Of a stretch of 13,252 nucleotides of DNA, positions 172-11,139 are shown piece by piece. The notes beneath the pieces were generated by a model that was given only the letters and a program-made list of their open reading frames with translations, ran no database searches and had not been told where the DNA came from. Position numbers and translations under genes: made by a program. The DNA is from Candidatus Avelusimicrobium ruminicola (GTDB taxonomy: Bacteria > Elusimicrobiota > Elusimicrobia > Elusimicrobiales > Elusimicrobiaceae). The stretch covers positions 1-13,252 of the forward strand of contig ONQH01000009.1 of assembly GCA_900319885.1 (NCBI GenBank), given 5' to 3'. Every line of letters begins with the position of its first letter. Position 1 is the stretch's first letter.

Positions 172-513
172 ATGTTCTTCCTATTGGTGATAGTTGTTTT
201 GATAGTCATATGGTTTATCTATACATCCCGCATTGCTTATTGCAATATGAAACTGTTTGATTATGCGTTATCCGGGGATGAATATCGTGTGCGCGAGTTG
301 TTGCGTACCAATGCAGATGTAAATATGCACGAGCCAAATGGTCTTACCCCTTTAATGGTGGCGGCTCAAAGAGGCCATATTCGTATTGTGAAATTGTTAT
401 TGGATGCCGGGGCAAATCCACGTTTAACTGATAACAAAGGATTTAATGCCCAATATCATGCCATGTGGTATGGCCATCCGGAAATAGCTGCTTTGATTGA
501 TCAGTATATGTAA
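172..513 (+). CDS. Membrane-anchored ankyrin-repeat protein
   Basis: A 113-residue protein. Residues 2-17 form one strongly hydrophobic segment (FFLLVIVVLIVIWFIY), most likely a signal anchor. The rest is ankyrin repeats: a degenerate one at about 26-54, a canonical one at about 57-86 (GLTPLMVAAQRGH, then IVKLLLDAGAN), and a partial C-terminal one at about 90-113. Ankyrin repeats bind proteins and have no catalytic activity, so this is probably a small membrane-tethered adaptor or an inhibitor/immunity-type protein; the partner is unknown. The ATG at 172 follows GAGGAG (160-165) with 6 bases between. The start is well supported because the membrane segment begins immediately after it. The stop lies at the very beginning of the large structured RNA region. 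Confidence 0.85.
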   Translation: MFFLLVIVVLIVIWFIYTSRIAYCNMKLFDYALSGDEYRVRELLRTNADVNMHEPNGLTPLMVAAQRGHIRIVKLLLDAGANPRLTDNKGFNAQYHAMWYGHPEIAALIDQYM

Positions 514-1101
514 AAGGAAGCGTAGTGGAAGGCAAGAGATAGGGCTTTTGCTCAATATGCGTTTCGCAGTAAGTTACTAGGCAACGGTTGCTCCAAGGTT
601 CGTTGCACCAAGGGCGGTCCGTTACAGAAGGGCGACTTGAAAATGTCCCTGCTTATTATCCCTGATTGGGTATTTGTAGTTATGCGGTATTTTCATATTT
701 AGTGAGTTAGAAGGTTAACCGGATGTGTAATTAACTTTCTGCTGGGAAAGGAAACTCTGAGTTTGTTAACTGCCCCGAAGTTTCAGTTAACAGCGGGTTT
801 TACGGAACCTGTCATATTGAGTATACAACCGTTTAATCGGAAGCCTAAAATTCCTGATTATATGCGTGTAATTGCAAAGAGAGGATGACCCGTAATAAGA
901 GCCGAGAGCCGTGCTATAAAGGGCTCCGGTAGGGCTCCGGCCAAGCATATTTTATTCCACTGCTTGGTGTCTAGTAGGCAGATTTTACGAATACAATGTC
1001 AGAAAATGCCAGATTTATGTTTATAGTGTAGGGGGCCACACCCGGTAGGGAGTAATCCCATAGTTGGCATATCTTACGTACTACCTTTACCCAAGGGGTA
1101 C
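511..1101 (+). ncRNA. Candidate large structured noncoding RNA (about 590 nt, ROOL/GOLLD-like in size and style)
   Basis: This stretch holds no credible gene but many perfect or near-perfect stems. They are TGCG/CGCA (558-561/565-568); GCAACG/CGTTGC (581-586/601-606); an 11-bp hairpin 708-718/731-741 with two G-U pairs; GTTAACTG/CAGTTAAC (765-772/784-791); GCCG-a-GAGCC (901-910) with GGCTCCGGC (933-941); CCAAGC/GCTTGG (942-947/961-966); ATGCCA/TGGCAT (1006-1011/1065-1070), which closes a 3' domain containing GTGT/ACAC (1026-1029/1038-1041) and GGGA-GTAA-TCCC (1048-1059) with a GNRA tetraloop. A possible terminal helix joins 513-524 to 1075-1088. The CCCC in the 773-783 loop could pair with the nearby GGG at 744-746 or 795-797. 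The size and many branches resemble the ROOL and GOLLD classes known from phages and rumen or gut bacteria, but I cannot confirm membership from memory. Plus strand is inferred from G-U pairs, the tetraloop and flanking gene direction. It lacks a terminator and leads directly into the NYN gene, so it could also be a very long 5' leader. Confidence 0.7.
1078..1101 (+). promoter_or_regulatory. Hairpin directly before the NYN-gene ribosome binding site
   Basis: GTAC (1078-1081) and CCTT (1084-1087) pair with AAGG (1093-1096) and GTAC (1098-1101) around a TACCC loop, with a small internal loop. The hairpin ends 4 bases before the AAGGAG at 1106-1111. Its left arm overlaps the 3' strand of the proposed long-range helix (1075-1088), so the two pairings exclude each other. 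A regulatory role is inference. Confidence 0.35.
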
Positions 1102-1117
1102 AACTAAGGAGATGTAT

Positions 1118-1513
1118 ATGACAAGTCTTATCATTGATGGATCCAATGTCGTTCGTTCGGCTTATGGCCTGCAAGGCAAGCCAAATTTTGATCTAGAAGC
1201 CCGGTTATCAGACCAATTAGTTGACTATGTGTCCAGTTTTAATACGGACTCTTCCAGAGAGATTGAATGTTATTTTGATGGTTATAAACGCGCCATTTCC
1301 CGCCCGCATGGAATGAGTGTGTTCTTCTCGGCTCGCCATAAAGCCGATAAACTCATCATCAATTCCATTTATGAGCATACCCAACAATATGGCCGCGATG
1401 TTTGCGTGGTTACGGCAGATAATGAAATTATCCAAGTAGCACGCGCTTGTGGTGCCGATGTGCAATACACATATTCTTTTTTAAAGGGTTTTTGGCCCTA
1501 TATCAATTTCTAA
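1118..1513 (+). CDS. NYN/YacP-like PIN-fold nuclease domain protein
   Basis: A 131-residue single-domain protein of the NYN (PIN-like) fold, closest in feel to the YacP family of RNA endonucleases. It starts with SLIIDGSNVV (acidic residue D7), followed by CYFDGYKR (D54), KADKLIINSI (D77) and VVTADNEI (D101). These are the four acidic positions expected for the metal-dependent active site, so it should be an active ribonuclease. At 131 residues it is shorter than typical YacP (about 170). I chose ATG 1118, not the upstream in-frame ATG at 1064, because AAGGAG (1106-1111) sits 6 bases ahead, the NYN fold begins right there, and 1064 lies inside a predicted RNA stem. Its stop TAA overlaps the AAGGAG of the helicase gene, so the two are coupled. 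Processing of the upstream structured RNA is an attractive but untested role. Confidence 0.82.
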   Translation: MTSLIIDGSNVVRSAYGLQGKPNFDLEARLSDQLVDYVSSFNTDSSREIECYFDGYKRAISRPHGMSVFFSARHKADKLIINSIYEHTQQYGRDVCVVTADNEIIQVARACGADVQYTYSFLKGFWPYINF

Positions 1514-1523
1514 GGAGATTATT

Positions 1524-2864
1524 ATGACACAGCAAATTATTTCTTCCGAATTGGAAATGACACCTGAAATTAAAAATGCTATTTACCACATTAATCACGG
1601 AGACAACGTGTTTATTCATGGCCGCCCCGGTACAGGGAAATCAACCTTCCTAAAAGGGCTTCGCGAGCATTTAAACGTGAAAAGCAAAAATGCTATGTTT
1701 GTGGCTCCCACGGGTATTGCAGCTTTGAACATTCATGGGCAAACCATTCATTCTTTCTTTCATCTTAATCCAAGTGATATCCATGCACCGCTCGACTATG
1801 CCAACCGCAATGCTTTAAAAACTGCATGGCGTAATTTGGATATTTTAGTCGTTGACGAAATTTCCATGGTTCGAGCCGATATTTTCGATAAAATGAATCA
1901 ACGCTTGCAAGAGGTGTTAGAGGACGAACGTCCCTTTGCCCACAAACAAGTTATTGTCGTAGGCGATTTAAACCAACTGGCTCCGGTGCTTAATGAGAAG
2001 TCCAACCTACAACAGGATAAATTGTGTAAAGAGAATTATAACACCTCCTACGTATTTGAAGCAAAATGCTGGAAAGAAATGAATTTTAAGCATATTTTCT
2101 TTACCAAGATTTTCCGCCAAACCGATAAAGAATTTACAAGCCACCTGGCTGCTTTGGAATCGGCGCAAGGCTCAAACTTTAGCAAAGCCCTTGATTATTT
2201 TAATAAACGGGTAACGGATAAACGTCCGCAAGAAGCCGTGTGTTTATGTGCGCGTAAAATTGACGCTCAGCACATTAACCAGGCAGAACTGGACAAATTA
2301 CCACAACCGACTTATCGTATCCCGGCATATCAAAGTAGTCGTTACGATAACGATTGGAAAGAGGCTAATTGCCCTGCCCCCAAGGTGTTGTACCTTAAAA
2401 TTGGTGCTAAAGTGATGTTCGTACGCAATGATGAAGAAAAACAATTCGTGAACGGTATGATAGGGCGAGTAAAAAGCATCAATTGTGTTAAAGAGCGTGC
2501 GATTAAAAGCATTACGGTTGAAATTGCGCCTGGGCGTGATGTGGAAGTACGTTGCTGTACGTGGTATAAGATGGTGCTTAATAAAAAAACCGGACGGCAA
2601 GAAGCTGACTTGGAAAATTACTTTTGCCAGTTCCCTTTACAATTGGCATGGGCAACCACTATCCACAAAGCCCAGGGTATGACTTTTGACTCTGCTTATG
2701 TGGACATGGGTGAAAAAGGAGCATTTAGTATCGGGCAAACTTATGTGGCTTTGAGCCGTGTACGCACCATAGAAGGATTGTGGCTTAAAAAACCGCTCAA
2801 AGAAACGGATATTTTGTCTAATCCAGCCGTAGAAAAGTTTTATCAAGAGATTAGGAATAAATGA
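1524..2864 (+). CDS. Pif1-like SF1B DNA helicase
   Basis: A 446-residue superfamily 1 helicase with all main motifs in order: Walker A GRPGTGKST (33-41); motif Ia APTGIAALNIHGQTIHSFF (61-79); Walker B VVDEISM (109-115); motif III GDLNQLAPV (147-155); FRQTD (197-201); and the C-terminal RecA-like motifs TIHKAQGMTFD (379-389) and YVALSRVR (407-414). This pattern is that of Pif1/RecD2-type 5'-3' ATP-dependent helicases, which unwind duplex DNA, RNA-DNA hybrids or G-quadruplexes. Compact stand-alone versions are frequent in phages and mobile elements. The ribosome binding site AAGGAG (1512-1517) overlaps the stop codon of the NYN gene, with 6 bases to the ATG, so nuclease and helicase are made together. 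No extra domain is visible. The family call is firm; the substrate is unknown. Confidence 0.93.
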   Translation: MTQQIISSELEMTPEIKNAIYHINHGDNVFIHGRPGTGKSTFLKGLREHLNVKSKNAMFVAPTGIAALNIHGQTIHSFFHLNPSDIHAPLDYANRNALKTAWRNLDILVVDEISMVRADIFDKMNQRLQEVLEDERPFAHKQVIVVGDLNQLAPVLNEKSNLQQDKLCKENYNTSYVFEAKCWKEMNFKHIFFTKIFRQTDKEFTSHLAALESAQGSNFSKALDYFNKRVTDKRPQEAVCLCARKIDAQHINQAELDKLPQPTYRIPAYQSSRYDNDWKEANCPAPKVLYLKIGAKVMFVRNDEEKQFVNGMIGRVKSINCVKERAIKSITVEIAPGRDVEVRCCTWYKMVLNKKTGRQEADLENYFCQFPLQLAWATTIHKAQGMTFDSAYVDMGEKGAFSIGQTYVALSRVRTIEGLWLKKPLKETDILSNPAVEKFYQEIRNK

Positions 2865-4847: not shown

Positions 4848-5231
4848 ATGCAAAACTATACACAATTAACCGCACGGGAATTACGTCTAAAATGGGCCGA
4901 GATCATAGGCCGGCCCATACCGCCAATCGGGCGAAGTCTAATTATCAAATATCTATTATGGTATGAACAAGCCAAGCATGAGAAACTTTCTCCACTTGGC
5001 TTTTTTCATGAAGTAGCCCAAGCCACCAAGGGAGCAGATAAACGCCCAAAAGCCACTCTTGAGATAGGCTCTAAACTAATCCGGTCCTATCAAGGGCTTA
5101 AATACGAAGTAGAAATCGTTCCACAAGGGTATCTATATGAGAATAATCTCTATAAAAGTCTATCCGGTGTAGCCAAGGCTATCACAGGTAAAAGCTGGAA
5201 CGGGAATGTATTCTTTGGAGTGAAGAAATGA
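4848..5231 (+). CDS. DUF2924 family protein, recombinase-associated
   Basis: A 127-residue basic protein matching the DUF2924 pattern. It has an N-terminal helix with LRLKWAEIIGRPIPPIGRSL, a helical middle, then GSKLIRSYQGLKYEVEIVPQ and the conserved C-terminal block with YKSLSGVAKAITGKSWNG followed by FFGVKK. DUF2924 genes are known as direct upstream partners of a particular group of large serine recombinases, so it is probably an accessory or directionality factor, or a DNA-binding helper; the precise function is not established. ATG 4848 follows AGGAGA (4837-4842) at 5 bases. Its stop overlaps the recombinase start (ATGA at 5228-5231), a classic sign of translational coupling. Confidence 0.85.
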   Translation: MQNYTQLTARELRLKWAEIIGRPIPPIGRSLIIKYLLWYEQAKHEKLSPLGFFHEVAQATKGADKRPKATLEIGSKLIRSYQGLKYEVEIVPQGYLYENNLYKSLSGVAKAITGKSWNGNVFFGVKK

Positions 5232-6847
5232 GTGATAAGAAAATACGTTGTGCTATCTATACGCGCAAATCAACGGAAGAAGGCTTGGAGCAAGAGTTCA
5301 ATAGCTTACAGGCCCAGAGGGAAGCGTGTGAGGCATACATTAAAAGCCAAAAGCATGAGAATTGGCAATTATTGCCTACTGAATATGATGACGGCGGGTA
5401 CTCAGGTGGCAATATGGAACGTCCGGCCTTAAAACGACTTTTATCTGATATTAAATCCGGCCTTGTTGATATTATTGTTGTCTATAAAATAGACCGCTTA
5501 ACCCGTAGTTTAATGGACTTTAGCAAAATAGTAGAGATATTAGACAAGCATAATGCCTCGTTTGTATCTATCACCCAACACTTTAATACCACTACCAGTA
5601 TGGGGCGGCTCACATTAAATATGCTACTCTCCTTTGCCCAATTTGAGCGGGAAGTAACAGGGGAACGCATAAGGGATAAGATTAGTGCCAGTAAGAAAAA
5701 GGGTATGTGGATGGGTGGAAAACCACCATTAGGATATTACCGCAAAGATAAGAAGATATACCCAGATGAAGAAAAATCAGCCCTAGTGCGCTCTATCTTT
5801 GAAAAGTATACTGAACTCAAGAGCACTACCTTGTTAAAAGACTGGCTAAATAAACAAGGGTACGCTATTTCAGTAGGGAACTTAAATTGTATCTTGCGCA
5901 ATAAGGCCTATATTGGTATGGTGGGACATAAAGGCATATGGTATCAAGGGGAACATCAAGGGATAATCCCAACCGAACTATTTGAGCAGGTACAAGCGGT
6001 AATGGTGGCCAACCGTATTAACCGTCAACATTATGACCCCAAGAAAAGTCTTTTGTCCGGCAAATTATATGATGATAAAGGAAACGCCATGAGCCCCAGT
6101 TGGAGTACAGGTTGTAGCGGTAAAACATACCGTTATTATGTGAGCCAGGCCATTATCCGCAAAGAGCCAAGCAAACTAGGCAAAATCGGCAAAGTGTCCC
6201 TACCACAATTAGAGAATTTCATAGATAGTTGGTTTGAAAGATTCTTACGCGAAAAGCAAAAGATACACCCATATATCCAACATTTTGAAGTTGCTAAGCA
6301 GAAGAAATTACTAAAACAACTATCGGCGTACACAATGACCCGAGACATAGAAAAAGCATTGATTAAGCGAGTCCAATTAAACCCAAACAAAGTAGAAATA
6401 ACCTTACATACAGAACAAGTATTGGAGTTATTTAATACCATTTATGAAAACCGGGAAATGCGCCAACTCAAACCCGAAGAATTGAAAACTGAAAATACCT
6501 ATACGGAGCCGTATCATATCGGTATAATAGCCAACGGAGAAAAGATAATCGTAGGACAGTTTGTAGAGCCAAAGAAACGCCCTAATAGCGAACTTATCAA
6601 AATCTTAAATCAGGCCTACACATGGCACCAAGACGTAATCAGTGGTACAAGCACACAAGATATAGCTAAGCGAGATAAAGTATGCGTGCAATATGTCCGC
6701 CGGATCCTCAATTTAAGTTTTTTGTCCCCTAAAATTGTCCGTTCTATCTTAAACGGTACCCAGCCGGCAGATTGCACACTCAAAAAATTGCTCTCAATAA
6801 AATCCCCGAATTGGCAAGAACAAGAAGGAAAAATAATTAAATACTAA
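5228..6847 (+). CDS. Large serine recombinase (integrase/resolvase family)
   Basis: A 539-residue site-specific recombinase. The catalytic resolvase domain spans about residues 6-155: YTRKSTEEG carries the nucleophile S15, a DDGGYSG motif lies at 54-60, KIDRLTR at 87-93 supplies catalytic arginines, and FAQFEREVTGERIRDKI (136-152) forms the long E helix. The Recombinase domain follows (GKPPLGYY at 164-171 onward). The region corresponding to the zinc ribbon (about 285-320, with RYYVSQAI) lacks paired cysteines, as I believe is usual for the DUF2924-linked subgroup. A C-terminal helix-turn-helix-like part (about 475-510, DIAKRDKVCVQYVRRILNLS) probably helps DNA binding. The protein is intact. 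It should cut and rejoin attP/attB without a tyrosine intermediate, mobilising the island. Confidence 0.93.
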   Translation: MSDKKIRCAIYTRKSTEEGLEQEFNSLQAQREACEAYIKSQKHENWQLLPTEYDDGGYSGGNMERPALKRLLSDIKSGLVDIIVVYKIDRLTRSLMDFSKIVEILDKHNASFVSITQHFNTTTSMGRLTLNMLLSFAQFEREVTGERIRDKISASKKKGMWMGGKPPLGYYRKDKKIYPDEEKSALVRSIFEKYTELKSTTLLKDWLNKQGYAISVGNLNCILRNKAYIGMVGHKGIWYQGEHQGIIPTELFEQVQAVMVANRINRQHYDPKKSLLSGKLYDDKGNAMSPSWSTGCSGKTYRYYVSQAIIRKEPSKLGKIGKVSLPQLENFIDSWFERFLREKQKIHPYIQHFEVAKQKKLLKQLSAYTMTRDIEKALIKRVQLNPNKVEITLHTEQVLELFNTIYENREMRQLKPEELKTENTYTEPYHIGIIANGEKIIVGQFVEPKKRPNSELIKILNQAYTWHQDVISGTSTQDIAKRDKVCVQYVRRILNLSFLSPKIVRSILNGTQPADCTLKKLLSIKSPNWQEQEGKIIKY

Positions 6848-6898: not shown

Positions 6899-7855
6899 AT
6901 GTCCAATCCGAATATTATCTTAGATATTCCCAATTTCCCCACTCATTTAAAACACGATATATTGAATGGGAAGACAATTATATTTGTCGGTTCTGGCTTC
7001 TCGAGGCTGGCAGGAATGCCCTCTTGGAAGGAGCTAGCAAAAAGGCGGTTGGAAGAGGTGCGGAAACGAGAATTAATATCCTACGAAACCTATCATCATT
7101 TACTAAATGAAAAACCACTAAAGATTTTATCAATTTGTGAAAATTTTTTAGACAGAGAAAAGTGGCACGATTGTTTATGTGCAGGGCGTGACCGTGAGAG
7201 AGAAAAACAAATAGCTGCACTCCTGGCACCTTTTGACTCGGGATTTATCACAACTAATTATGATGATTTATTAGAATTAGTTCCCATAGAAAATCCTTCG
7301 AATGCAGTAACAAAATTTCATAAACCTCATACGGGAACAAAAAATTATCATGTGAAAGAAGAAACCACCTTTGATTCTTTTCTAATTCAACCAAAACATA
7401 AAGTATATTACCTTCATGGAAAAGACTTGTCTGACACCAATCCTCCAATTTGTACCCTTCAAGATTATTTTAAGCATTATAGACGGGAAGGAAAAGGGAG
7501 GCAAATACTAGAAGAATTGTGTGCTAAAAAAAGCATATTATTTATTGGTGTAGGGCTGGAAGAATTCGAAATATTAGAACATATACATATGTCAAGATAT
7601 GAAAATCAGCATTATGCATTGATTCCTATGTTTTTATATGAAGAGAAAATTTTAAAGCAATATCGAGCCTATTATGGAATTTTAAATATAGATATCTTGC
7701 CATATAACATTTCTAAAAATGGATATGAACAACTAGAAAATGTTTTGAAGGAATGGGGACAAATTTTGCTTCATGAAAAAGATTCCTTCGACGATGTATC
7801 CAAACATTTACAGAACAATGTTTTAATAGATGGAGTTGCGCATGGTTTGGACTAA
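6899..7855 (+). CDS. SIR2-like domain protein, probable NAD-consuming defence effector
   Basis: A 318-residue protein of the SIR2-like fold. Visible motifs are IIFVGSGFSRLAG (27-39, the nucleotide-binding GxGxS loop), FITTNYDDLLE (116-126, with the conserved N120), VYYLHG (169-174, with the catalytic-type H173) and FIGVGLEEFEI (215-225). Many bacterial proteins of this type are not deacetylases. They degrade NAD+ on phage infection (Thoeris ThsA, DSR, SIR2-Argonaute systems), and the order and spacing here fit that group. Nothing resembling a SLOG, Argonaute or STAND module follows the SIR2 domain, so sensing probably lies in the next gene, whose start overlaps this one. I chose ATG 6899 with AGGA at 6890-6893; a TTG at 6869 in the same frame lies on the promoter. 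Codons are AT-rich (many ATA, AGA), unlike the right-hand chromosomal genes. Confidence 0.85.
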   Translation: MSNPNIILDIPNFPTHLKHDILNGKTIIFVGSGFSRLAGMPSWKELAKRRLEEVRKRELISYETYHHLLNEKPLKILSICENFLDREKWHDCLCAGRDREREKQIAALLAPFDSGFITTNYDDLLELVPIENPSNAVTKFHKPHTGTKNYHVKEETTFDSFLIQPKHKVYYLHGKDLSDTNPPICTLQDYFKHYRREGKGRQILEELCAKKSILFIGVGLEEFEILEHIHMSRYENQHYALIPMFLYEEKILKQYRAYYGILNIDILPYNISKNGYEQLENVLKEWGQILLHEKDSFDDVSKHLQNNVLIDGVAHGLD

Positions 7856-10853
7856 AACACATCAGAAGGTTCTAGACTTAATAGTAAAAGATGAGTATGC
7901 CCGAGAGTATTTTTTTCAAACAGCATCATCCCCTTTATTTCTTCTACCATTATTTAAGCGGGGGTTTTTTTCATCTGAATCTATCCCTGAATATCCTGTA
8001 TCATGGTTTCAATATAAATATCTGACCGAAGTCGCGAAAGAAATTCAGGAACATATAGTAGAAGACAAACGATATGATAAGTACGTAGCTGAATTGCTAT
8101 CAATTTTAAAATACTTTTCTCAGGGAACAGAAGCCCTCTCCCCTGAGAAGGTACTTTTGGTCTTTGAGTGTTTTTGTGATATATTTAAATTGCTACCAAC
8201 CGATAATATTCCCTTAGTTTCTATTAAGGAATTGGTTTCTTTATGCCCTTATTTAAATCATTTGAATTTGGTTACTTACCGTATTAAGGAGTTGATCCAG
8301 AAATTTCTGAAAAATAAGGGATATAAAAAGGCGCAGGAGTTATTTCAAGATTTTTTACCGATTCTTCTCCAATCAGAATTGAAAGAGAGTGACAAAAAAT
8401 ATTTTTTACAAGAAATAAGCAAAATTCCTTTTTTTATCAGGGGAAATGGTAGTCTCTTTCGATTTCTTCTGAACATTATATCCGAGAGAAGAGAACCAAG
8501 AGATATAATAGACTATCAATTTGGTAGTATTCTGATTTCTTTGATTCATAGAAAAAATGTAATTTTAGGGAAAGTGACTTCTAAAAAGGGGACTTTTACA
8601 TTCGAAATACCTATTATTCCATACAAAAATAGGAACAATCTAGTTTCATTAGTTTGTAAAAAAATTATAAAAATCCCCAAAAATGAAAGAAATAAGATTG
8701 CTGATGAAATAAAATCTTTGTACTATACGCATCTTTGGAAAAGGCATTACGGCATTCATTCTCTAATATCTCTGGAGAAAGGAGAGCAATACGTTTGTAC
8801 TGTGGATGAACAATTGATGCTTTTGGTGTCCGTTATGTTAAATCAGCAAGCAAACATTCAGCCTCTTTATCAGTTTAAAACACAATTTTTAAACCCATTA
8901 TATGGCATAGGCTTAGAAATAGGATGGAGGATTCTTCTTTTCTTTTTTGGGAAAATATCACCTAGATATAATAGCAGTGCAATTACCTTTTTGAAAAGGC
9001 ACAAGGAATTACTGTTTGTTGATAGTATGTTTGAGGGGGAAGTTTTTGATTTGCTTCTTCTTTTGGCATCTTCCTGTAAGGGGGAAAAACAGAAAAAAGC
9101 ATTGGTCGATTTGGTCAAGAAGGGACCGTATCTCGAATTTGTCGGAAGTGTTTCTAAAAAAGCGAATTACGAGCAATTTTGGAAAAAGAAATGGCTTGCA
9201 GCTTTGTTGGCGATACCTGAGTGCAAAAAAGCATATCAGGAATTATCAAATATTCCTAAGGAATGGATTAATTCTAGAGATGCGCAATCACGAGAAATTA
9301 TTTATCAATCTCCATTTGCACAAGAATATATTTTAGATGAAGCTGATACTAATACAGATAGGTTGATTAATAAAATTCAAGAATTTGATATGCAGTATCA
9401 ACCGGATACTAGAGATTTTTTTTATGAAAAACCATCACCCGAAGGTTTAGCGGAGGCATTGGAGAAAGCGGCACAAAAATATCCTCAAATAATGGCCAAA
9501 ATATTGGGCCAATTTGATCAAATAAATTTTACATATATTGAAGCAATTTTAAATGGAATAAGACGTAGTGGAAATAAGATAGATTCGAACTCTTGGAAAA
9601 TGATTTTTGCCGATATAGCGAAAATACTAAAAAAGATATTTTCTACTTCTTTTGTCGGTTCTCCACAGCAAAAAGAACGTTTGATAACGATAATATTGGG
9701 GATAATTTCAGAAAAATATAATGAGTTTAAGGGACAAGGTGCTTATTTGCAGATTATGGATATTGTGGAGTTTATTTATCATCAATACAAAGCTCCCGTT
9801 TCTTCACTAGAGAAAAATAGTTATGATAGTTATCTCACGGCATCTTTGAATTCTGTTTGGGGATTATTGGCACAAGCAATCATTGGCCTGTCATTAAGTG
9901 TTTCTCCTTTTCGGAATGCTTCGCATAAAAACATTTGGGAAAAGAAAGCGCAGCAGTTATACAGTGAGTTGCTATCTTCCAATATTCCTGAAGCCTATGT
10001 CTTCTTAGGATTCCATTATGACTGCTTTTTCTTTCTAAATAGAAGATGGTTAAACACAAAAATAAAAAGTATCGCTCAAAAAACAGCGGAAAGAATTTAT
10101 TTCTTTAGTGGTTATCTTTATTTGAAAGTATTTTTCCCTGATGAATTACATAATTTTAAGAATGATTATCACTCTTTGGTGCAAAAAGAGGTATTTTCTC
10201 CTTCAACACAAGAAATAGCTGCTGAACGATTGGTAACTTTACTAATTAACCAAGAAAAAGTTGAGGATGCTAAGAATGAAATGGAATGGATAGTTAAACA
10301 TGCTTATCCCTTGTTTCTATCTTATATTGCTCATTCTTTGCATAACTTATTAACATTTGGAAAGTATCGAATAACGAAGGGAGAAAATGCGGTCAAGAAA
10401 ACAGAAATAGTTTTTCATTTTTGGAATCAAGTATATCGAAAATTTAAAGATAATGAATTGAACACTGATGAAAGACGTGCAATGGTGTCTTTATTGTCTT
10501 TGTTGCCTCTTATACCTCGAATGAATCACCAATATCGAAATATGCTTTCTGTTTCGCTTAAATATTGCGAAAATCAACCTCCAATCTCATTTCTGGACAA
10601 TTTATTGAAAATTACGAAAATCACTCCAAAAGACTGTAAAAGATTCTGTGGAGAAGTCCTAAATGATTACATAAAGACATTTCCAGTAAACATAGCAGGG
10701 CATACTGAAATCTTACTACAACTAGTAGATATGATCTACGAAAAGGACAATCATTCACAACCCTTTCAAAATTTACTTCAAATATTACAGCAAATACATG
10801 CCCACGAATTAGCTAGCAAAATTGCGCGTCGATTTGAACTTAAGTTCAAATAA
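7842..10853 (+). CDS. Large helical protein of unknown fold, partner of the SIR2 gene
   Basis: A 1003-residue protein that appears helical almost throughout (alternating leucine-rich and lysine/glutamate-rich stretches), suggesting an alpha-solenoid or repeat scaffold. A short beta-rich insert is likely around residues 235-260 (GKVTSKKGTFTFEIPIIPYK). I see no Walker A motif, no nuclease motif, no membrane segment and no signal. It overlaps the SIR2 gene: ATG 7842 lies inside the SIR2 coding end (stop 7853-7855), with GGAG at 7832-7835 six bases ahead. An in-frame ATG at 7830 is possible but would place its ribosome binding site badly. Single-chain SIR2 defence proteins carry long helical C-terminal sensor regions, so this may be the same architecture split in two. 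The C-terminal part (near 890-940, with FHFWNQVYRK) faintly recalls DUF4020 of SIR2-linked proteins; this is a guess from memory. Confidence 0.8.
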   Translation: MVWTKTHQKVLDLIVKDEYAREYFFQTASSPLFLLPLFKRGFFSSESIPEYPVSWFQYKYLTEVAKEIQEHIVEDKRYDKYVAELLSILKYFSQGTEALSPEKVLLVFECFCDIFKLLPTDNIPLVSIKELVSLCPYLNHLNLVTYRIKELIQKFLKNKGYKKAQELFQDFLPILLQSELKESDKKYFLQEISKIPFFIRGNGSLFRFLLNIISERREPRDIIDYQFGSILISLIHRKNVILGKVTSKKGTFTFEIPIIPYKNRNNLVSLVCKKIIKIPKNERNKIADEIKSLYYTHLWKRHYGIHSLISLEKGEQYVCTVDEQLMLLVSVMLNQQANIQPLYQFKTQFLNPLYGIGLEIGWRILLFFFGKISPRYNSSAITFLKRHKELLFVDSMFEGEVFDLLLLLASSCKGEKQKKALVDLVKKGPYLEFVGSVSKKANYEQFWKKKWLAALLAIPECKKAYQELSNIPKEWINSRDAQSREIIYQSPFAQEYILDEADTNTDRLINKIQEFDMQYQPDTRDFFYEKPSPEGLAEALEKAAQKYPQIMAKILGQFDQINFTYIEAILNGIRRSGNKIDSNSWKMIFADIAKILKKIFSTSFVGSPQQKERLITIILGIISEKYNEFKGQGAYLQIMDIVEFIYHQYKAPVSSLEKNSYDSYLTASLNSVWGLLAQAIIGLSLSVSPFRNASHKNIWEKKAQQLYSELLSSNIPEAYVFLGFHYDCFFFLNRRWLNTKIKSIAQKTAERIYFFSGYLYLKVFFPDELHNFKNDYHSLVQKEVFSPSTQEIAAERLVTLLINQEKVEDAKNEMEWIVKHAYPLFLSYIAHSLHNLLTFGKYRITKGENAVKKTEIVFHFWNQVYRKFKDNELNTDERRAMVSLLSLLPLIPRMNHQYRNMLSVSLKYCENQPPISFLDNLLKITKITPKDCKRFCGEVLNDYIKTFPVNIAGHTEILLQLVDMIYEKDNHSQPFQNLLQILQQIHAHELASKIARRFELKFK

Positions 10854-11064: not shown

Positions 11065-11139
11065 CGGAGCCGACGAGATTCGAACTCGCGGTCTCTGCCT
11101 TGACAGGGCAGCGTGTTAACCAGGCTACACCACGGCTCC
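11065..11139 (-). tRNA. tRNA-Asp (anticodon GTC)
   Basis: On the minus strand the acceptor GGAGCCG pairs with CGGCTCC, followed by discriminator G. The D arm is GTGT/ACAC with loop AGCCTGGTTA. The anticodon arm is CTGCC-CTGTCAA-GGCAG, giving anticodon GTC for aspartate. The T arm is GCGAG-TTCGAAT-CTCGT. A G at the discriminator position is typical of bacterial tRNA-Asp. The 3' CCA is not encoded, so it must be added after transcription. The gene is intact, with its own promoter upstream and terminator downstream. tRNA genes are favourite borders of islands, and this one lies about 210 bases from the last accessory gene, but serine recombinases do not usually target tRNA genes themselves. Confidence 0.96.

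What the first reader, a model, noticed from the sequence alone, without database searches (positions are those of the whole stretch)
511..1101. Large ornate structured RNA with no coding content
About 590 bases separate two well-defined genes, hold no plausible protein, and contain at least nine independent perfect or near-perfect stems, including an 11-bp hairpin at 708-741 and an 8-bp one at 765-791, plus a GNRA tetraloop and a possible 11-bp end-to-end helix (513-524 with 1075-1088). This density is far above what a random spacer would show. The size and style fit the giant bacterial RNA classes ROOL and GOLLD, which are phage- or island-linked and of unknown function. It may be a member, a divergent relative, or a new class.
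Basis: partly seen in the sequence, partly recalled or inferred. Interest (0 to 1): 0.85.

Follow-up and report, generated by a model that had tools for sequence, protein, structure and literature searches.

The report
New large island-borne structured RNA
A stretch without a protein gene in a mobile, defence-carrying island of an Elusimicrobium-type bacterium encodes a large folded RNA (about 460 letters here, up to about 585 in relatives) that matches no RNA family in the Rfam library.

Summary
A structured RNA lies at about 517-973 (+). Homologues occur in 9 of 340 genomes of the phylum, all in one genus. Across nine copies, 94% of cells of a 112-pair structure pair, and 40 pairs show double-sided changes against 20 in shuffles. 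The consensus fold has z = -15.8 on the + strand, -7.4 on the - strand. Single-sequence folding was unremarkable (z = -1.2), so comparison carries the proof. A 5'-hairpin internal loop pairs with a 3'-hairpin loop (7 bp, covarying), tying the ends together. Positions 974-1117 are promoter motif and leader of the next gene. No Rfam family matches credibly; the ROOL model finds ROOL on its known plasmid but not here. Seven copies sit in mobile islands just before NYN-nuclease and Pif1-helicase genes; two sit elsewhere. Best reading: a discrete, trans-acting, island-borne RNA of a new class. Expression and function are inferred, not shown.

The parts
517..973 (+). large structured RNA (457 nt here; about 553-584 nt in the copies that keep an extra domain)
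   Evidence: homologues in 8 further genomes, alignment A1, pair counts, consensus fold on both strands
518..564 (+). 5' hairpin: P1a 518-523/559-564, internal loop 524-530, P1b 531-538/545-552
   Evidence: 96.3% and 97.2% of cells paired, 3 and 4 pairs with changes on both sides
524..530 (+). 5' arm of long-range pseudoknot PK1 (AGTGGAA), pairs with 955-961
   Evidence: 7 of 7 pairs formed in all nine copies, 3 pairs with changes on both sides; found by exhaustive helix search
955..961 (+). 3' arm of PK1 (TTCCACT), in the loop of the 3' hairpin
578..582 (+). 5' arm of closing helix P2, pairs with 969-973
   Evidence: 93.3% paired, 2 pairs with changes on both sides
969..973 (+). 3' arm of closing helix P2; 3' end of the conserved RNA
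   Evidence: conserved similarity to the two copies without NYN stops just after it
596..650 (+). arm P4/P5 (596-598/648-650, 602-604/642-644, 608-611/637-640, 617-620/630-633)
   Evidence: 88.9-92.6% of cells paired, compensatory changes in each of the four helices
652..899 (+). central domain closed by P6 (652-659/892-899) and P8 (673-683/868-878)
   Evidence: 100% of cells paired in both helices; P8 has 3 pairs with changes on both sides
698..702 (+). 5' arm of loop pseudoknot PK2 (TTTAG), pairs with 845-849 in the loop of P11
   Evidence: 100% paired, 1 compensatory pair, 4 invariant pairs
   Evidence: 93.8% paired, no compensatory change
   Evidence: 93.8% paired, 5 compensatory pairs; insert in 6 of 9 copies
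941..967 (+). 3' hairpin P14 (941-946/962-967) carrying the PK1 loop
   Evidence: 100% paired, 1 compensatory pair
995..1027 (+). island promoter-like motif (AATGTCAGAAAATGCCAGATTTA ... TATAGT) in front of NYN
   Evidence: same motif, up to 5 of 23 mismatches, upstream of NYN in 7 of 7 islands and upstream of the DUF805 and nuclease genes
1028..1117 (+). leader of the NYN gene, strongly conserved among NYN-linked copies
   Evidence: 974-1117: 113 of 137 aligned bases identical to L020, against 307 of 445 in the RNA
172..513 (+). upstream gene: ankyrin-repeat protein with N-terminal hydrophobic segment; stop 3 nt before the RNA
1118..1513 (+). NYN_YacP-domain protein (putative RNA endonuclease)
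   Evidence: Pfam PF05991 E 4.6e-12
1524..2864 (+). Pif1/Dda-like helicase
   Evidence: Pfam PF05970, phrog_325
5228..6847 (+). serine recombinase (probable integrase of the island)
   Evidence: Pfam PF00239, PF07508, phrog_95 integrase
6902..10853 (+). cargo: SIR2-domain protein plus 1007-aa protein, together like a split Dsr1
   Evidence: PADLOC Dsr1 E 8e-48 and 3.8e-29
11065..11139 (-). tRNA-Asp at the island's end
   Evidence: second partial copies of this region at the far end of two islands

Best explanation
Positions 517-973 encode a discrete, trans-acting structured RNA of a class not in Rfam, carried by small integrative islands of one genus of Elusimicrobiota. Shown by comparison: it folds as + strand RNA into a closed multi-helix body whose 5' hairpin (internal loop) and 3' hairpin (loop) lock onto each other. 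Inferred: it is transcribed either at the end of the DUF805/ankyrin transcription unit (its 5' end follows that unit's last stop codon by 3-10 nt in the seven NYN-linked copies) or from its own promoter (the two stand-alone copies), persists as a stable particle because its ends are tied up, and serves the island as an RNA scaffold or regulator. Its steady neighbours in seven of nine copies, the NYN nuclease and Pif1 helicase, are the first candidates for partners, but two copies exist in genomes without a close NYN, so the RNA cannot depend strictly on them.
For: Homologues: 9 of 340 genomes in the phylum, one genus. Pair counts on nine copies: 94.2% of cells paired, 40 pairs with changes on both sides against 20.2 +/- 2.5 in shuffles (0 of 500) and 3-8 in slid controls; covariation score 0.311 against 0.188. 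Consensus fold z -15.8 (+) against -7.4 (-), 0 of 60 shuffles each. Structure trained on the seven island copies and tried on the two others: 104 of 123 and 96 of 115 pairs stand, slid controls 47-60 of 121-123 and 46-58 of 112-114. Not a coding stretch. Discrete unit: it occurs with different upstream and downstream genes, and conservation with L022 and L023 starts and stops at the same points. A promoter-like pair of hexamers ends 6-7 nt before the conserved 5' end in both stand-alone copies.
Against: No expression data at all. Promoter-like sites are no more frequent than in shuffles (2 against 2.5 in L023, 7 against 7.7 in L022), and no such site stands right before the RNA in the window. 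No terminator was found after the RNA in the three loci scanned. In all nine copies a gene on the same strand follows, within about 30-145 nt, so a leader role is not excluded. The count of further pair types does not exceed shuffles (75 against 72.5, 135 of 500 reach it). Nine copies amount to about four lineages. Helices P12 and P13 (75% paired) and P3 (84%) are weak, chiefly in the window's own clade. The pair structure was drawn on the same alignment on which it was counted.
Confidence: 0.7

Rival explanations
1. A very large cis-acting leader: the RNA regulates whichever gene follows it (NYN-Pif1 in seven copies, a small membrane protein in L022, a 160-aa membrane protein in L023).
For: A co-directional gene follows in 9 of 9 copies: about 140 nt on in the seven NYN copies, about 30 nt in L022 and about 50 nt in L023, with a Shine-Dalgarno-like sequence.
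Against: The downstream genes of the three contexts are unrelated. In the seven NYN copies a promoter-like motif shared with other island genes lies between RNA and NYN, so NYN would not need the RNA in its message.
Confidence: 0.17
2. A member or remote relative of ROOL (or GOLLD), i.e. the same homo-oligomeric cage RNAs.
For: Size, ornate fold, mobile-element and tRNA association, and a dispensable internal domain resemble what PMC12286853 reports for ROOL and GOLLD.
Against: No Rfam match at gathering score in five of the nine copies' loci or below it in three; ROOL control positive on its plasmid; R1 finds only noise there. Architecture differs: ROOL's ends form one long helix in its model, whereas here a hairpin stands outside a 5-bp closing helix and is tied in by a pseudoknot.
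Confidence: 0.06
3. A DNA-level element (replication origin, transfer or recombination site) folding as single strand.
For: It lies on a mobile island and has long inverted repeats.
Against: Strand asymmetry of the consensus fold (z -15.8 against -7.4); 78 G-U against 13 A-C cells in the pairs of six copies (biased, because helices were chosen with G-U allowed). Stand-alone copies lack the island.
Confidence: 0.04
4. A spacer whose stems are chance, or a decayed protein gene.
For: Single-sequence folding is not significant.
Against: Compensatory changes, consensus z and hold-out; no shared ORF.
Confidence: 0.01

Closest known systems
ROOL RNA (Rfam RF03087)
   Same: size class (model 574 positions), ornate fold with pseudoknots, mobile-element location near tRNA genes, a region that varies freely between homologues (PMC12286853, section 6)
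   Different: no covariance-model match; different closing architecture; no sequence motif in common that R1 can see
GOLLD RNA
   Same: large ornate RNA of phages and prophages, variable linker (PMC12286853, sections 8-9)
   Different: no match at gathering score in the window and four relatives nor to E = 10 in three copies; no tRNA inside this RNA
OLE RNA
   Same: large structured RNA; small membrane-protein genes beside it are reminiscent of the OLE/OapA pair (analogy only)
   Different: no Rfam match; the neighbours with a Pfam name are DUF805 and ankyrin
HEARO RNA
   Same: structured RNA of a mobile element
   Different: no Rfam match; no HNH/IsrB-type gene among the nine window proteins scanned
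Large noncoding transcripts of phage ICP1 and its PLE satellites
   Same: abundant large ORF-less transcripts in a phage and in satellite islands (PMC7567579, one passage read)
   Different: those are defined by RNA-seq; I made no sequence comparison with them

Membership tests
ROOL (RF03087) | covariance-model score at or above 99.1 bits | tested here: not met
   no match in window or in 21 genomes of the lineage; positive control 130.4 bits
ROOL (RF03087) | long helix joining the 5' and 3' ends, everything else inside | tested here: not met
   model structure: here a 5-bp closing helix with the 5' hairpin outside it
ROOL (RF03087) | carried by phages, prophages or other mobile elements, often near tRNAs | tested here: met
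   island ends at tRNA-Asp; not specific to ROOL
ROOL / GOLLD | homo-oligomeric nanocage | not testable with these tools
   needs cryo-EM or mass photometry
GOLLD | covariance-model match | tested here: not met
   no positive control run for this family
OLE | covariance-model match | tested here: not met
   no positive control run
OLE | OapA partner gene | not tested
   no OapA model was searched by name
HEARO | covariance-model match and an HNH/IsrB-type gene nearby | tested here: not met
   no positive control run
conserved structured RNA (any class) | compensatory base changes above controls | tested here: met
   R-scape itself not available

The most novel reading that the evidence does not exclude
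A new class of large ornate RNA, the signature RNA of a family of defence-carrying mobile islands, whose 5' internal loop and 3' loop lock together, within one molecule or between molecules, into a compact or multimeric particle that the island needs, possibly as cofactor or cargo of its NYN nuclease and Pif1 helicase.
Probability: 0.3. Interest if true: 0.82.

Novelty: new variant of a known kind. Interest (0 to 1): 0.62.

Why it matters
Bacterial RNA classes above 450 nt with conserved structure are few (ROOL, GOLLD, OLE and a handful more, recalled), and for ROOL and GOLLD no function is known (PMC12286853). This one comes with steady gene neighbours on a small island instead of a large phage, exists in a compact form (457 nt) and in a form with one extra domain, and has a sharp prediction (the end-to-end loop pairing) that simple mutants can test. 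It would add a third, apparently unrelated line to the question why mobile elements carry big RNAs.

Tried and rejected
Rejected: ROOL, GOLLD, OLE, HEARO membership. Below-cut-off Rfam matches judged chance: PhotoRC-I (11 bits, cut-off 45, minus strand), mir-9256 (19.1, cut-off 80) and ZFAT-AS1_3 (12.3, cut-off 70), SraB (18.8, cut-off 130, minus strand).

Searches for wider kin that led nowhere: phage and plasmid records by blastn with the window and with L020: no match. The NYN protein in viral contigs: no relative. DNA patterns in viral contigs: 1, 6 and 1 stretches; L024 falls inside a coding ORF, and L066-L070 and L072 were tried with R1: best L070 at 19.8 bits, whose alignment lacks most of the conserved blocks; judged chance. 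Pattern in genome contigs: 22 stretches, of which 7 are real by R1 (125.7-176.7 bits), the other 15 not. L034 (G114), a 29-base blastn match, was judged chance after reading its sequence. G016 has a 42% identical NYN with kinase and Pif1 genes nearby but no R1 match within 16 kb (best 8.9 bits). The automatic consensus mispaired P9 and parts of P11; replaced by a curated structure.

Limits: R1 covers only window 612-756, and searches of more than 40 genomes use stricter filters, so distant copies may be missed. Literature: two searches combining Elusimicrobi with structured noncoding RNA (0 papers) or noncoding RNA (7 papers, listing only, none by title on this subject), and one on NYN, Pif1, defense island and serine recombinase (0 papers with three of the four terms). 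The library holds no subscription papers, and the paper I recalled as the original ROOL report is not held.

Full report
Where it is. The window is one whole contig (C115, 13,252 bases) of a 1.2 Mb draft genome, 83% complete. Named relatives found by a pattern scan and confirmed by the RNA model are five 'uncultured Elusimicrobium sp.' records, one 'uncultured Elusimicrobiales bacterium' and one 'uncultured bacterium'. That the RUG names of the five are rumen genomes is recalled.

Is it real? Folding of the single sequence says little: z = -1.21 on + and -0.71 on -. Relatives decide. blastn finds the region in 9 of 101 related genomes: two at 97-98% identity (L016, L017), four at 72-80% over parts (L018-L021), and two far ones (L022, L023). 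A covariance model (R1, window 612-756) finds the same nine in 149 genomes of the order and in 340 of the phylum, each with E at most 5.6e-28, and nothing outside one genus.

The structure. An exhaustive search for helices on six of the nine rows and a curated structure of 112 pairs in 19 helices, counted on all nine rows, give 94.2% paired cells (shuffled 88.0), 40 pairs with changes on both sides (shuffled 20.2 +/- 2.5; slid controls 3-8) and covariation score 0.311 (shuffled 0.188); none of 500 shuffles reaches these. The number of further pair types does not stand out (75 against 72.5; 135 of 500 shuffles reach it). The RNAalifold energy of six rows is -91.0 against -29.7 +/- 3.9 in 60 shuffled alignments on the + strand and -46.5 against -18.9 +/- 3.7 on the - strand, so it is the + strand that is shaped by selection. 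A structure computed from the seven island copies alone fits L022 in 104 of 123 pairs and L023 in 96 of 115, slid controls being about half that. Among pairs where the held-out copy shows a base unseen in training, however, the excess is small or absent (13 of 29 for L022, 23 of 41 for L023, against 10-19 and 15-28 in slid controls); pairs new on both sides are 4 (controls 0-3) and 10 (controls 1-4). All rows were aligned together, which helps such a test.

Anatomy in window coordinates. P1a 518-523/559-564 and P1b 531-538/545-552 form the 5' hairpin; its internal loop 524-530 pairs with 955-961 in the loop of the 3' hairpin P14 (941-946/962-967). This seven-pair contact is complete in all nine copies and three of its pairs covary (A-U, U-A, C-G and U-G at the first position). 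P2 578-582/969-973 closes the body, P3 585-591/933-939 follows (weak in the window's clade), then the arm P4/P5, then the core P6 652-659/892-899 and P8 673-683/868-878 with 100% of cells paired. PK2 (698-702/845-849) ties a loop of the core. Between P9 and P10 six of nine copies carry an extra domain that the window's clade lacks. By coordinates the length from P1a to P2 is 457 nt here, 554 in L018, 584 in L022 and 553 in L023.

What it is not. No shared ORF. Not an Rfam family: gathering-level scans of the window and of L018, L020, L022, L023 give tRNAs only; permissive scans of the window, L023 and L020 give only far-below-cut-off matches. The ROOL model works as a control on plasmid pMP118 (130.4 bits).

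Surroundings. In seven copies the RNA begins 3-10 nt after the stop codon of a DUF805 gene (L018-L021) or an ankyrin gene (window, L016, L017) and is followed by NYN_YacP, Pif1 and a DUF6694 lipoprotein gene. DUF2924 and serine recombinase genes lie within the fetched stretch in six of the seven; in the seventh, G049, a recombinase of 85% identity lies about 19 kb away on the same contig. Two islands show both ends, with repeats of the tRNA-Asp region: L018 (about 15.6 kb) and L020 (about 12.9 kb). Cargo differs: split Dsr1-like (window, L019), patatin plus CD-NTase as in CBASS (L017), caspase and TIR-like (L021). No capsid or terminase was among the proteins scanned (19 in Pfam; 10 in PHROGs). 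A 23-base motif (AATTGTCARAAAATGCCAGATTTA-like, up to 5 mismatches) lies upstream of NYN in 7 of 7, of the DUF805 unit in 6 of 6 islands whose stretch shows it (35 to about 250 nt upstream), and of the SNase gene in 5 of 5; two further matches, one in L017 and one inside a cargo gene of L019, do not fit this rule neatly. I read it as the island's shared promoter or operator; its end in front of NYN places NYN's own start after the RNA.

The two stand-alone copies. L022: beside a tRNA-Leu, after a 45-codon ORF read by eye and before a small membrane-protein ORF that resembles the 74-aa island gene, then a Sel1-like lipoprotein. L023: after a divergent gene and 440 nt, before a 160-aa gene, a Sel1-like gene (30% identical to that of L022) and an SNase gene 63-65% identical to the islands' SNase. 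Neither genome has an NYN match at E <= 0.001. So the RNA is a unit that moves or survives without NYN and Pif1, yet belongs to the same gene pool. In turn, G016 has a 42% identical NYN with kinase and Pif1 genes but no R1 match; close NYN (E below 1e-60) and the RNA coincide in 7 of 7 genomes.

How it may work. Shown: a conserved + strand RNA fold with tied ends. Inferred: a discrete stable transcript acting in trans as scaffold or regulator for the island. GOLLD and ROOL assemble into cages that surround a variable linker (PMC12286853; abstract and sections 6, 8 and 9 read), and the variable domain here invites the same question, but nothing I ran tests oligomers. PMC7567579 (one passage read) reports abundant large noncoding transcripts in a phage and its satellites, so such RNAs are not confined to large phages.

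Verdict. A genuine, apparently undescribed class of large island-borne RNA; new within a known kind. Interest 0.62: strong structural proof, narrow distribution, no expression data.

Noticed in passing
window 995-1027; L016-L021 as: A 23-base motif with TGTCA/TGCCA half-sites stands upstream of NYN (7 of 7), the DUF805 unit (6 of 6) and SNase (5 of 5): a likely shared promoter or operator of the island.
   Followed up: partly
window 1028-1117: The NYN leader is more conserved than the RNA itself between clades and holds a GGGA-GTAA-TCCC hairpin and a hairpin just before the Shine-Dalgarno sequence; it may be a regulatory leader in its own right.
   Followed up: partly
window 6902-10853; L019 5173-9133: SIR2-domain protein plus a 1007-aa protein match the two halves of Dsr1: a split Dsr1-like defence system.
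   Followed up: partly
L018 4047-9011 and counterparts; L094 3866-7822: A 620-aa protein without any Pfam, PADLOC or PHROG match sits beside a Ser/Thr kinase with TPR repeats; with NYN and Pif1 they may form an undescribed module (also in G016 without the RNA).
   Followed up: partly
L017 16682-19183; L021 15271-16658: Other islands of the same kind carry CBASS-like (patatin, CD-NTase) and caspase plus TIR-like cargo at the same place.
   Followed up: partly
L022 8106-9020; L023 11636-13251: Both stand-alone RNA copies are followed by small membrane-protein genes and a Sel1-like lipoprotein gene (30% identical to each other).
   Followed up: partly
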